Shown here in pieces: positions 38,201 to 44,200 of a stretch of 64,000 nucleotides of DNA. How positions within the stretch are numbered: the first letter of the stretch is position 1; each line of letters opens with the position of its first letter. The notes below the pieces were generated by a model. The model was not told where the DNA came from, made no database searches, and saw only the letters and a list, made by a program, of their open reading frames with translations. Made by a program: the position numbers and the translations under genes. Origin of the DNA: Gibbula magus (Eukaryota; Mollusca; Gastropoda; Trochida; Trochidae); NCBI GenBank assembly GCA_936450465.1, contig OW388297.1:62121202-62185201 (forward strand). The letters run 5' to 3'.

Positions 38201-41200
38201 AGATTCAGAATTCAGAGATATACTTAAGCAATTTAAGACCGGTAAGTCTGTTTGCAAGACATTGATATTGCATCTAACATAATTATGTCTCCCTCCCAAC
38301 TGCAGTTTTAATTATTTAAAAAAATGTATTTACACCTTTTCATTTTTATTTGAAAGTGCAAAAAATGCAATGCATAAAATAAAATAATATGCATACAAAA
38401 AAGAGTGAAGGTCGATAGAGCAATATTAACAACTAGACCATATATTCGACGATTTTGAGATTCCCAACACTTTATGCGCCATCTTATGACGCCATAGAAT
38501 GTTTTATCCTACTCCCTCCTAGTCAGACGCGCACGGCAAACGTATCAACGAGCAATACCCTCGCATTTGTTTATCCTAAACAGACACGGAAACTTCTTAT
38601 TGGCCAATGAAATTAAATCGTTCTGCATGCTGGTAAGATAAGTAGCAAACCTCACCCTGGATGCGCAGGACATGAATCCGCTCCCAACTTTCTTACTGTC
38701 CGTGAATGTGATGTCCTCTTCTTCAATCTTCCACCACCAAAGGTCTGCCTCGGATCTCAACTTCCATTTCCTGCATACACATGGTGTACTATACATATGG
38801 TTCATCTCCTGCATACACATGGTGTACTATACATATAGTTCATCTCCTGCACACACATGGTGTACTATACATATAGTTCATCTCCTGCATACACATGGTG
38901 TACTATACATATAGTTCATTTCCTGCATACACATGGTGTACTATACATACATATAGTTCATATCCTGCACACACATGGTGTACTATACATATAGTTCAGC
39001 TCCTGCATACACATGGTGTACTATATATAGTTCATATCCTGCATACACATGGTGTACTATATATAGTTCATCTCCTGCATACACATGGTGTACTATACAT
39101 ATATTTCATATCCTGCATACACATGGTGTACTATATATAGTTCATCTCCTGCATACACATGGTGTACTATACATATAGTTCATCTCCTGCACACACATGG
39201 TGTACGATACACATATTTCATATCCTGCATACACATGGTGTACTATATATAGTTCATCTCCTGCATACACATGGTGTACTATACATATAGTTCATCTCCT
39301 GCATACACATGGTGTACTATACATATAGTTCATCTCCTGCATACACATGGTGTACTATACATATAGTTCATATCCTGCATACACATGGTGTACTATATAT
39401 AGTTCATATCCTGCATACACATTGTGTACTATACATATAGTTCATCTCCTGCACACACATGGTGTACGATACATATAGTTCATCTCCTGCATACACATGG
39501 TGCACTATATATAGTTCATCTCCTGCATACAAATGGTGTACTATACATATAGTTCATCTCCTGCACACACATGGTGTACGATACATATATTTCATATCCT
39601 GCATACACATGGTGTACTATATATAGTTCATCTCCTGCATACACATGGTGTACTATACATATAGTTCATCTCCTGCACACACATGGTGTACTATACATAT
39701 ATTTCATATCCTGCATACACATGGTGTACTATATATAGTTCATCTCCTGCATACACATGGTGTACTATACATATAGTTCATCTCCTGCACACACATGGTG
39801 TACGATACATATATTTCATATCCTGCATACACATGGTGTACTATATATAGTTCATCTCCTGCATACACATGGTGTACTATACATATAGTTCATCTCCTGC
39901 ACACACATGGTGTACTATACATATATTTCATATCCTGCATACACATGGTGTACTATACATATAGTTCATCTCCTGCACACACATGGTGTACTATACATAT
40001 AGTTCATCTCCTGCACACACATGGTGTACGATACATATAGTTCATCTCCTGCATACACATGGTGTACTATACATATAGTTCATCTCCTGCACACACATGG
40101 TGTACTATACATATATTTCATATCCTGCATACACATGGTGTACTATATATAGTTCATCTCCTGCATACACATGGTGTACTATACATATAGTTCATCTCCT
40201 GCACACACATGGTGTACTATACATATATTTCATATCCTGCATACACATGGCGTACTATATATAGTTCATCTCCTGCATACACATGGTGTACTATACATAT
40301 AGTTCATCTCCTGCACACACATGGTGTACGATACATATATTTCATATCCTGCATACACATGGTGTACTATATATAGTTCATCTCCTGCATACACATGGTG
40401 TACTATACATATAGTTCATCTCCTGCATACACATGGTATACTATACATATAGTTCATCTCCTGCATACACATGGTATACTATACATATATTTCATATCCT
40501 GCATACACATGGTGTACTATATATAGTTCATCTCCTGCATACACATGGTGTACTATACATATAGTTCATCTCCTGCATACACATGGTGTACTATACATAA
40601 AGTTCATCTCCTGCATACACATGGTGTACTATACATATATTTCATATCCTGCATACACATGGTGTACTATATATAGTTCATCTCCTGCATACACATGGTG
40701 TACTATACATATAGTTCATCTCCTGCACACACATGGTGTACGATACATATATTTCATCTCCTGCATACACATGGTGTACTATATATAGTTCATCTCCTGC
40801 ATACACATGGTGTACTATACATATAGTTCATCTCCTGCATACACATGGTGTACTATACATATAGTTCATCTCCTGCACACACATGGTGTACTATACATAT
40901 AGTTCAGCTCCTGCATACACATGGTATACTATACATATATTTCATATCCTGCATACACATGGTGTACTATATATAGTTCATCTCCTGCATACACATGGTG
41001 TACCATACATATAGTTCATCTCCTGCATACACATGGTGTACTATACATATAGTTCATCTCCTGCATATACATGGTGTACTATACATATAGTTCATCTCCT
41101 GCATACACATGGTGTACTATACATATAGTTCATCTCCTGCACACACATGGTGTACTATACATATAGTTCATCTCCTGCACACACATGGTACACTATACAT

Positions 41201-44200
41201 ATAGTTCAGCTCCTGCATACACATGGTACACTATACATATATTACGTGTCTGTCTCAAATTTCCTTTTCTATATGGTGATACTTTGACGTCACGAAACTT
41301 CTACCTGACTCAATGACATGTATTCAAGAAAAGACCTATATCCTTCATATGTGGAGTTAATAAAGGATACGTGATATCGATGTAAGATATCGAGAAAGGT
41401 TCAGTAAGACAAGCAAGGGACATAGCATACGCACCTAATAAAGGTTCGATGCAACCCGCAAGGAACATGACATACACACCTGAGAAAGGTTCAGTAAGAC
41501 AAGCAAGGGACATAGCATACGCACCTGAGAAAGGTTAAGTGAGACACTCGAGAGACATGACATACGCACCTGAGAAAGGTTCGGTGCAACCCGCAAGGAA
41601 CATGACATACACACCTGATAAAGGTTCAGTAAGACAAGCAAGGGACATAGCATACGCACCTGAGAAAGGTTCGGTGCAACCCGCAAGGAACATGACATAC
41701 ACACCTGAGAAAGGTTCAGTAAGGCAAGCAAGGGACATAGCATACGCACCTGAGAAAGGTTAAGTGAGACACTCGAGAGACATGACATACGCACCTGAGA
41801 AAGGTTCGGTGCAACCCGCAAGGAACATGACATACACACCTGAGAAATGTTCAGTAAGACAAGCAAGGGACATAGCATACGCACCTGAGAAAGGTTCGGG
41901 GCAACCCGCAAGGAACATGACATACACACCTGAGAAAGGTTCAGTAAGGCAAGCAAGGGACATAGCATACGCACCTGAGAAAGGTTAAGTGAGACACTTG
42001 AGAGACATGACATACGCACCTGAGAAAGGTTCGGTGCAACCCGCAAGGAACATGACATACACACCTGAGAAAGGTTAAATTAGACAAGCAAGGGACATAG
42101 CATACGCACCTGAGAAAGGTTAAGTGAGACACTCGAGAGACATAACATACGCACCTGAGAAAGGTTCAGTGAGACACGCAAGGGACATAGCATATCTACC
42201 TGAGAACGGTTCAGTGAGACACGCAAGGGACATAGCATACGCACCTGAGAACGGTGCAGTGAGACACGCAAGGGACATGGCAAACACACCTGAGAAAGGT
42301 TCAGTGAGACACTCAAGAGACATGACATACGCACCTGGGAAAGGTTCAGTAAGAGACGCAAGGGACATGACATACGCACCTGAGAAATGTTCAGTGAAAC
42401 ACTCAAGAGACATGACATACGCACCTGGGAAAGGTTCAGTAAGAGACGCAAGGGACATGACATACGCAACTGAGAAAAGTTAAGTGAAACACAAAAGAGA
42501 CATAACATACGCACCTGAGAAATGTTCAGTGAGACACGCAAGGGACATAGCATACGCAACTGAGAAAGTCTCAGTAAGACACGCAAGGGACATGACATAC
42601 GCACCTGTGAAATGTTCAGTGAAACACTCAAGAGACATAACATACGCACCTGAGAAATGTTCAGTGAGGCACGCAAGGGACATGACATACGCAACTGAGA
42701 AAGTCTCAGTGAGACACGCAAGGAACATGACATACGCACCTGAAAAAGGTTCTGTGAGACACTCACGAGACATTATATACGCACCTGAGAAATGTTCAGT
42801 GAGACACGCAAGAGACATGACATACGCACCTGGGAAAAGTTCAGTGAGACACGCAAGGGACATAGCATACGCAACTGAGAAAGGTTCAGTGAGACACTCA
42901 AGAGACATGACATACGCACCTGGGAAAAGTTCAGTGAGACACGCAAGTGACATAGCATACGCAACTGAGAAAGTCTCAGTGAGACACGCAAGGGACATGA
43001 CATACGCACCTGAAAAAGGTTCAGTGAGACACTCACGAGACATTACATACGCACCTGATAAAATGTTCAGTGACATTACATACGCACCTGAGAAAGGTTC
43101 AGTCAGATAAGCAAGGGACATAGCATACACACCTGAGAAAGACGCTACCAACCGAGGCCGAAACGATGATGATAGTGGCGAAACAGACATACACAGCAAT
43201 GGTGGAGGTAGGAACTGCATCTGCAACAAACATAACACACGGTCCTGGATCAAACCCATTCAATATTTCAAACAACACGGAGCTCTACGAGATTCCGTCA
43301 GATCATAGATGAATGACAACCCATATTAGCAATTAAGTCTTGGGAACGAATCAATGATTTGATTTTAATGAGATTTGACTTTCACCTAGCTTGGCTCTAA
43401 CTTTTCATTAATCAATGATATGTCTTGGAAAATTGTATATGTTGTACCCTTGACAATAGGTCATTGAAATAGTCATATTATTTAGCCTTCTAACCTTGAC
43501 GTTAATGATGACACACTTTTTGGAATATTAACCTTCATATAACTTTCAATTCGTCAGTATTTGAAACTGTTATGTTTCAGATGTCACATATTGAGGTCAT
43601 AACCTTTGATCGTAAGGCCTTGACCTTGGTGTAGGAAGCATTTTCTGAAAACCTTAACCATGGCCATAAGTTTTTTTTTATCAGTAAAATAATAAAATCA
43701 ACCTTTGATATTCGACATGCTTAGTTATTGTCGCTAGATCATTCCGAAGATAAATACTTTGATCAAAGACCATACTGATCATGTTGAATGCATCTTTAAT
43801 CTTTTTTAAATTACCCACATATTTAAACTGCTTAGTTGGTGAATAGTTTGTACAACAATAATACAAACACTTTACAAAGGAGCCAGTGTTTATTATACAA
43901 TTTGGTCAAACCAATTATATATTTAACAAAAACAGTCATAAAATTAGTGTTAACGAAATTAAGTCAACATGATAGATATTCAGTATATTATTATCAGTTC
44001 AGTTCAGTTCATTTTATTTCCCGTAAAACCACCACCGGTGCTACATGAGAATACAAAAATGCTTCGCATTTAAACAGATAGTAAAGTTCATCTCCGACAA
44101 CAGAGGAGTTACATAGAATACATATACGATTTTCTCTAGGGGCATTTTCCCAACGACCAACTTCTAGGTAGGTGGTGATTGCTAGTTCTAAATCGTAAAA

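What the first reader, a model, noticed from the sequence alone, without database searches (positions are those of the whole stretch)
38771..43132. An intron built almost entirely from tandem copies of its own two splice sites
Intron 7 is 4362 bp. One end (41395-43132) is a 45-bp array whose unit contains the exon 7 donor junction. The other end (38771-41250) is a 34-38-bp array whose unit contains the exon 8 acceptor junction. Only about 144 bp between them is unique. Two independent arrays each seeded exactly at an exon edge of the same intron is not what random minisatellite birth would give. It suggests a mechanism linked to the splice junctions (replication slippage at edges, reverse-splicing or template switching) or selection for decoy sites. 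The mechanism is inference; the sequence match is direct.
Basis: partly seen in the sequence, partly recalled or inferred. Interest (0 to 1): 0.88.

Follow-up and report, generated by a model that had tools for sequence, protein, structure and literature searches.

The report
Intron made of its splice-site copies
In a predicted receptor-enzyme gene of what is likely a top-shell snail, the two ends of one intron are each repeated dozens of times, so the predicted splice sites sit among about a hundred copies of themselves, probably through ordinary tandem-repeat growth of the kind first described in lancelets.

Summary
Minus-strand intron 43132-38771 (4362 bp) of a receptor guanylate cyclase gene is 97% tandem array: 39 donor-edge units (mostly 45 bp) and 66 acceptor copies (36-42-bp units). 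At 30 other exon-interval edges of the gene I found no junction copies. The window is very probably Gibbula magus chromosome 9.

The arrays run 9 and 6 nt into the exons, so they straddle the splice cuts. Four paralogues fetched (of six other matches) have the intron at the same codon and phase without junction arrays, so the intron is likely older. A second case lies in another guanylate cyclase gene (C17): a 123-bp unit, 11.6 copies, about 69 nt of exon in each; its neighbour gene has 2.5 copies.

This matches amphioxus 'mirages'. Best reading: ordinary minisatellite growth over splice junctions, tolerated because the outermost copies still make the correct mRNA; all 2243 other site pairs meet a stop. 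The donor unit boundary is AG|GT, so stepwise removal is possible but untested. A splice-linked birth or selection for decoys is not supported. No RNA was examined.

The parts
43133..43220 (-). Exon 7: transmembrane exon (88 nt, phase-2 end), ...GTC TTT CTC AG|
   Evidence: translation AVPTSTIAVYVCFATIIIVSASVGSVFLR; counterparts predicted in 4 paralogues
41392..43141 (-). Donor-edge array: 39 units, mostly 45 bp, each like ...ACCTTTCTCAG|GTGCGTATG...; begins 9 nt inside exon 7; 34 of 39 units start GT, 38 of 39 end AG
43132..43132 (-). Predicted donor site CAG|GTGTGT (first intron base)
41242..41391 (-). About 150 bp of unique intron between the two arrays; holds a 9-nt pyrimidine run and a CAG|GTAGAA
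38765..41241 (-). Acceptor-edge array: 66 copies of an acceptor like ...CATGTGTATGCAG|GA.ATG, units 38/36/42 bp, with a 112-bp (three-unit) higher-order period; ends 6 nt inside exon 8
38771..38771 (-). Predicted acceptor site GTGTATGCAG|GAAATGG (last intron base)
38656..38770 (-). Exon 8 (G AAA TGG AAG ... TCC AGG), predicted donor |GTGAGG
   Evidence: (donor position printed before that script stopped with an error); RKWK/RRWK in Haliotis and Elysia proteins and paralogues

Best explanation
Intron 7 carries at each end a minisatellite whose unit straddles the predicted splice junction, and these arrays likely grew in an older intron by slippage or unequal exchange, without any link to the splicing reaction. 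Each tandem duplication of a segment spanning a junction leaves the outermost copy attached to the real exon. The correct mRNA therefore stays possible however many inner copies arise, and the array is inferred to be tolerated. Once present, the arrays appear to turn over in the middle while the end copies are kept. Shown by sequence: the arrays, their overlap with the exons, the paralogues without junction arrays, and the end-preserved pattern. Inferred: slippage or unequal exchange as the mutation, near-neutrality, and exclusive use of the outermost sites (probably by exon definition). Because the donor unit joins AG to GT, stepwise removal of donor units would also give the correct mRNA; this is predicted and untested.
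For: Junction copies lie at only 2 of 32 edges, the two ends of this intron. Exon overlap is 9 nt (CTTTCTCAG) and 6 nt with one unit variant. Four paralogous genes were fetched, of six other matches. All four have exon 8 starting at the same codon and phase, with no junction copies at the acceptor. Each has a predicted transmembrane exon upstream, giving introns of 225, 1387, 460 and 1224 bp, and no TRF array touches its donor. The paralogue L033 exon starts GAAATGG as here, so that coding sequence is likely older than the array.

Second case: C17 has 11.6 copies (98% match) of a 123-bp unit with about 69 nt of exon and the CCCTAG|GTCCAG acceptor; the neighbouring paralogue has 2.5 copies (92% match) of the same unit. 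At all three informative columns there the first copy and the last inner copy agree while the middle copies share another state. In the window's donor array the inner half has a five-unit repeat (identity 0.95 at lag 5, against 0.84 in the exon half), and the exon-side unit is closest (3 differences) to the 37th of 39 units, near the far end.

Of 2244 donor-acceptor pairs only the outermost pair is open and in frame. The genome is minisatellite-rich. Precedent: amphioxus 'mirages', with RT-PCR suggesting regular splicing (PMC3087553, passages).
Against: No RNA was examined, so use of the outermost sites is inferred. The acceptor in use has a poor pyrimidine tract (8 of 17 pyrimidines; paralogues 9-14; longest run in the whole acceptor array 4 nt), so normal splicing is not guaranteed; against the weakest paralogue the difference is only one base. 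Two junction arrays in one intron is more than a simple seed model expects (P about 0.002-0.04). Orthologues in other snails could not be read, only paralogues, and their exon 7 is a prediction. The exon-side match at exon 8 is short, and only 2 nt match the commonest unit.
Confidence: 0.75

Rival explanations
1. The donor array works as a run of recursive splice sites: each internal unit boundary is a zero-length exon (AG|GT) with a short pyrimidine tract, so the array is predicted to be removed in steps that always regenerate the same donor before the last step to exon 8.
For: 33 of 38 internal boundaries read AG|GT (from 34 of 39 GT and 38 of 39 AG). Donor-array acceptors average 12.5 of 17 pyrimidines (10-14), against 8 for the exon 8 acceptor. 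The consensus unit holds a branch-like CTCAC.
Against: A donor-edge duplication carrying CAG|GT gives AG|GT for free. A single unit (45 nt) is short for an animal intron (recalled). The consensus unit has no match to the fuller branch motif YNYTRAY. No RNA evidence. Five boundaries have lost GT.
Confidence: 0.1
2. Selection keeps the copies as decoy or poison splice sites that lower or regulate expression of the receptor through nonsense-mediated decay.
For: All 2243 non-standard site pairs meet a stop. All 66 acceptor copies keep GCAG.
Against: Stops are expected in any untranslated unit. The conserved acceptor lies within 25 of 38 invariant columns, so nothing marks it. Five of 39 donors are dead. 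0 of the 4 paralogues fetched have junction arrays there.
Confidence: 0.07
3. A splice-linked mutation (reverse splicing or template switching on RNA) made the arrays at the exon edges.
For: Both ends of one intron are affected. Unit 1 of the donor array and the acceptor unit share TGTGTATGC (shuffle p 0.011; consensus units p 0.33).
Against: Repeated segments run 9, 6 and about 69 nt across the cut into the exon with adjoining intron, so their ends do not coincide with splice cuts. Array-rich genome.
Confidence: 0.05
4. The intron itself was created by tandem duplication of an AG|GT segment (Rogers-type intron gain), and the arrays are what is left.
For: The unit has the required AG|GT. The amphioxus globin paper proposes this route for mirages.
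Against: The same intron sits at the same codon and phase in the 4 paralogues fetched, without junction arrays.
Confidence: 0.02
5. Assembly error inflated the repeats.
For: Long arrays are hard to assemble; the exact copy number may be off.
Against: The assembly this window most likely comes from is HiFi-based with QV 52.2. Units are diverged and ordered, and the arrays join single exons.
Confidence: 0.03

Closest known systems
Amphioxus 'mirages' (minisatellites spanning exon-intron boundaries; Adh3, TnC, globin BflGb6/BflGb9, PGBD5)
   Same: Tandem units straddle a splice junction and many carry copies of the splice signals; 5' or 3' boundaries can be affected; inner copies homogenise while boundary copies are excluded (PMC3087553 and PMC3902484, passages read).
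   Different: A likely snail, not a lancelet; both ends of one intron at once, filling 97% of it; 39 and 66 copies, against 6 and 3 repeat units in the two BflGb6 haplotypes. Splicing here is untested, while Adh3 and globins have expression data.
Intron gain by tandem duplication of AG|GT (Rogers model)
   Same: Unit carries AG|GT and could be spliced out whole (review PMC3443670, passages).
   Different: This intron is not new: the 4 paralogues fetched have it at the same phase.
Recursive splice sites / ratchet points (zero-length exons); known to me from recall; none of the 10 papers listed (of 1,349 holding two of the terms) joins them to tandem repeats
   Same: AG|GT boundary with a short pyrimidine tract.
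   Different: Dozens in tandem at 45-bp steps; no RNA evidence.
Intronic minisatellites of molluscs (abalone TSSK1-like intron 3, 27-bp unit)
   Same: Long intronic array in a gastropod, repeat number differing between individuals (PMC6905558, passages).
   Different: No splice-junction copies are described in the passages I saw.

Membership tests
Mirage (exon-intron boundary minisatellite) | Tandem repeat unit spans an exon-intron boundary | tested here: met
   Units straddle both junctions by 9 nt and (one variant) 6 nt of exon; 27 and 65 near copies of the junction 20-mers; the C17 unit has about 69 nt of exon
Mirage (exon-intron boundary minisatellite) | Repeats carry copies of the splice signals | tested here: met
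   34 of 39 donor units keep GT; 66 of 66 acceptor copies keep GCAG
Mirage (exon-intron boundary minisatellite) | mRNA is spliced normally despite the copies | not testable with these tools
   No RNA data held; the likely species has RNA-seq ERR10123686
Mirage (exon-intron boundary minisatellite) | Copy-number instability | tested here: inconclusive
   No second haplotype of this locus was examined; C17 neighbour paralogues differ, 11.6 vs 2.5 copies of one unit
Intron gain by AG|GT tandem duplication | Intron absent from relatives that lack the duplication | tested here: not met
   Intron present at the same codon and phase in the 4 paralogues fetched
Recursive splice site (ratchet point) | Juxtaposed acceptor and donor AG|GT with pyrimidine tract | tested here: met
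   33 of 38 internal donor-unit boundaries AG|GT, 10-14 of 17 pyrimidines upstream
Recursive splice site (ratchet point) | Stepwise splicing intermediates in RNA | not testable with these tools
   No RNA data

The most novel reading that the evidence does not exclude
Junction arrays are a recurrent way for introns to grow in this snail. A donor-edge array is self-erasing, because each unit boundary is an AG|GT ratchet point and the spliceosome can remove any number of units without changing the mRNA. At the acceptor edge the spliceosome must reliably pick the outermost of 66 near-identical acceptors with poor pyrimidine tracts. The intron would then be a natural test of how an end copy is chosen among identical sites.
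Probability: 0.15. Interest if true: 0.75.

Novelty: new member of a known kind. Interest (0 to 1): 0.5.

Why it matters
It carries a phenomenon described in lancelets to a likely mollusc, with junction arrays in two separate guanylate cyclase loci of one genome, so it is probably not a lancelet oddity. With 34 intact donors and 66 acceptors of similar sequence in one intron, it makes splice-site choice by position (exon definition or first-come) directly testable with ordinary RNA-seq. It also suggests how minisatellites can lengthen an intron (225-1387 bp in paralogues, 4362 bp here) while leaving the coding sequence untouched.

Tried and rejected
Amphioxus as the source: rejected, because the closest proteins listed are gastropod (the first four, Haliotis, at 57-70% identity over 80-95% of the query, then Lottia and land snails, best 120 listed).

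Common origin of the two arrays: unit 1 and the acceptor unit share TGTGTATGC (p 0.011), but the consensus units do not stand out (p 0.33), and the opposite-strand comparison is no better than shuffles (p 0.516 and 0.559). Not pursued.

RNA structure of unit pairs: z -0.91 and -1.11, unremarkable.

Chance null: array coverage (12-16%) was set aside as the wrong null, because an array that starts inside an intron does not come to contain an exon edge by growing. Births per base times unit length is used instead.

A PF00005 search scored only 19 of 322 candidates and showed no tandem exon pieces among 18 matches; it is not informative. Paper searches showed no mollusc junction minisatellite among the papers listed (19 of 19; 4 of 4; 15 of 126; 10 of 14; one library of open-licence papers). 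A gastropod hemocyanin intron paper has no 'minisatellite' in its main text (PMC7931591, passages). A search of solved structures with the reading frames around exons 7-8 found nothing. Of six other matches, two weak ones (C12, C13; E 0.3 and 0.8) were not fetched; no guanylate-cyclase match lies near them.

A genome-wide count of donor arrays by pattern with a reversed-pattern control, and searches with PF00063 and PF00520, were planned but did not complete. So only the guanylate-cyclase family was surveyed with any depth (150 of 180 candidates scored).
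Full report
What the locus is. The minus strand of the window carries a receptor guanylate cyclase gene. Exon pieces match ANF_receptor, PK_Tyr_Ser-Thr, Pkinase, HNOBA and Guanylate_cyc in Pfam. Its closest listed relatives are natriuretic-peptide-receptor-like proteins of gastropods, Haliotis first at 57-70% identity, then Lottia and land snails. The held genome has 1,470,318,725 bases in 140 contigs and the window lies on a 78,278,488-base contig. 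The published Gibbula magus assembly spans 1,470.4 Mb in 151 scaffolds with a chromosome 9 of 78.28 Mb (PMC10394393, passages). The species is inferred from this size match; no record names it.

The observation. Exon 7 (43220-43133) ends ...GTC TTT CTC AG| and the intron begins GTGTGTATG at 43132. The intron ends ...GTGTATGCAG at 38771 and exon 8 begins G AAA TGG AAG. The joined reading is SVFLR|KWKLRSEADLWWWK. Haliotis supports its exon 8 side (RKWKIQSQRDLWWWK; that model lacks the transmembrane part), and Amphiura P0019 supports the join from the transmembrane segment into YKKMKMDAELSNMSWKI. From the donor side 39 units, mostly 45 bp, run to 41392. From the acceptor side 66 acceptor copies in 36-42-bp units run to 41241. 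About 150 bp between them is unique. Together the arrays are 4212 of 4362 bp, or 97%. Of 32 exon-interval edges in this gene, only these two have near copies of a straddling 20-mer within 3 kb, 27 and 65 at the best offset; the other 30 have none (some interval edges are approximate and were scanned +-30 nt).

The arrays straddle the junctions. The last 9 nt of exon 7 (CTTTCTCAG) equal the end of the donor unit. The first 6 nt of exon 8 (GAAATG) equal one unit variant; the commonest unit (GAGATG) shares the first two before a mismatch. The edges of the repeated segments are therefore not the splice cuts. The inner end of the donor array finishes with CCTTTCTC, so a 7-bp direct repeat (CTTTCTC) flanks the array. 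Slippage between such short repeats could have started it, although any partial last copy would look the same.

Relatives. A search with exons 7-8 found six matches outside this gene. I fetched four, each on the same strand as a guanylate-cyclase match 18-55 kb away; two weak ones (C12, C13) have no such neighbour and were left. All four start exon 8 at the same codon and in the same phase, with no junction copies at the acceptor. All four have a predicted transmembrane exon upstream, ending at a GT in phase 2, which gives introns of 225, 1387, 460 and 1224 bp. Predicted exon lengths are 91 nt, 82-126 nt (several starts, 88 among them), 88 nt and 82 nt (these rest on hydrophobicity and splice-site phase only). 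TRF shows no array touching those donors. One paralogue (C14) begins exon 8 with GAAATGG, as here. The intron and that exon sequence are therefore likely older than the array. The C9 62.01-Mb paralogue has its own 14-bp array inside its 225-bp intron, 46 bp from the donor and away from the junction.

A second case. Searching the genome with the guanylate-cyclase domain gave 134 matches (150 of 180 candidates scored). Nine are partial copies of one exon on a 123-bp grid just before the full exon on C17 (one grid place had no match), and one more partial copy precedes the full exon of a neighbouring paralogue. The fetched DNA shows a 123-bp unit repeated 11.6 times at 98% match, and 2.5 times at 92% in the neighbour. 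Each of the 12 acceptor copies in the first array reads CCCTAG|GTCCAG. The 11 inner copies match the first 70 nt of the exon with 1-4 mismatches, and only the last copy continues into the full exon. This detection needs about 26 exonic codons in the unit, so arrays like that of the window would be missed. By eye I saw no other run among the remaining 124 matches. No other family was surveyed with any depth (one search scored 19 candidates).

How the arrays grow. At the three informative positions of the C17 array the first copy and the last inner copy agree, and the middle copies share another state. In the window, the inner half of the donor array has a five-unit repeat (identity 0.95 at lag 5, against 0.84 in the exon half), and the exon-side unit is closest, with 3 differences, to the 37th of 39 units. 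In the acceptor array the sixteen 36-bp units are absent from the first six and last six places. Middle expansion with preserved ends is close to what the amphioxus globin paper describes.

Splicing consequences. Thirty-four of 39 donor units keep GT and 38 of 39 keep AG; 66 of 66 acceptor copies keep GCAG. Of 34 x 66 = 2244 possible pairs, only the outermost pair is open and in frame; the 2243 others meet a stop in exon 7, the included units or the first 128 nt from the exon 8 start. Thirty-three of 38 internal donor-unit boundaries read AG|GT, so removing whole units restores the same donor. That is a property of the sequence; whether it happens is unknown. The acceptor array has no pyrimidine run longer than 4 nt. 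The exon 8 acceptor has 8 of 17 pyrimidines, against 9, 10, 11 and 14 in the four paralogues, 10 at exon 7, and 10-14 at donor-array AGs. How exon 8 is recognised is thus the open question.

Chance. In 20 stretches of 10 kb spaced evenly along the same chromosome, 12-16% of bases lie in arrays, depending on the threshold; two stretches are array from end to end, and without them the share is about 6%. Summed unit length per base is 0.0025, 0.0040 or 0.0065 for at least 10, 5 or 3 copies. For per-edge chances of 0.002, 0.004 and 0.01, two or more hits among 32 edges have probability 0.002, 0.0075 and 0.041. That is unusual, but the case was picked after the fact and the sample is small. It does not call for a splice-linked mutation.

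Known or new. Tandem repeats spanning exon-intron boundaries were named 'mirages' in amphioxus (Adh3), seen in globins at 5' and 3' boundaries, and noted in TnC and PGBD5; regular splicing was suggested by RT-PCR for globins and by the Adh3 data (PMC3087553; PMC3902484; passages only, the original Adh paper was not read). Among the papers listed I saw no mollusc case. I file this as a new member of that kind, in a likely new phylum, with both ends of one intron affected. It is not an intron gain, because the paralogues have the intron.

Noticed in passing
window 1-23151: A 51-bp tandem array of about 457 copies (93% match) fills the left third of the window and reaches its edge.
   Followed up: no
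window 47312-53435: A 6.1-kb array on an 11-bp base unit lies in the intron before exon 7 (minus-strand order), about 250 bp from the nearest exon interval; it is not at a junction.
   Followed up: partly
window 55394 (minus strand): A likely acceptor is followed at once by a donor-like sequence: TTGCTGCAG|GTGAGTTTTCATGCG at the start of a coding exon.
   Followed up: no
window 44523-44894 (minus strand): Reverse-transcriptase fragment (RVT_1, below the curated cut-off) in the same intron as the 11-bp array.
   Followed up: no
L029 (G000:C17:19547201-19549000) and L030: Acceptor-edge array of 123-bp units (11.6 and 2.5 copies) in two neighbouring guanylate cyclase genes; in L029 the first copy keeps a long pyrimidine tract (TTTTTTCCCCTAG) that the other copies lack.
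   Followed up: yes
window 41242-41391 (minus strand): The unique middle of the intron holds GTCTTTTCTTG and, further on, CAG|GTAGAA, another AG|GT after a pyrimidine tract.
   Followed up: no
L031 1628-1715: The nearby C9 paralogue has a 14-bp array (6.3 copies) filling 39% of its 225-bp version of the same intron, away from both junctions.
   Followed up: partly
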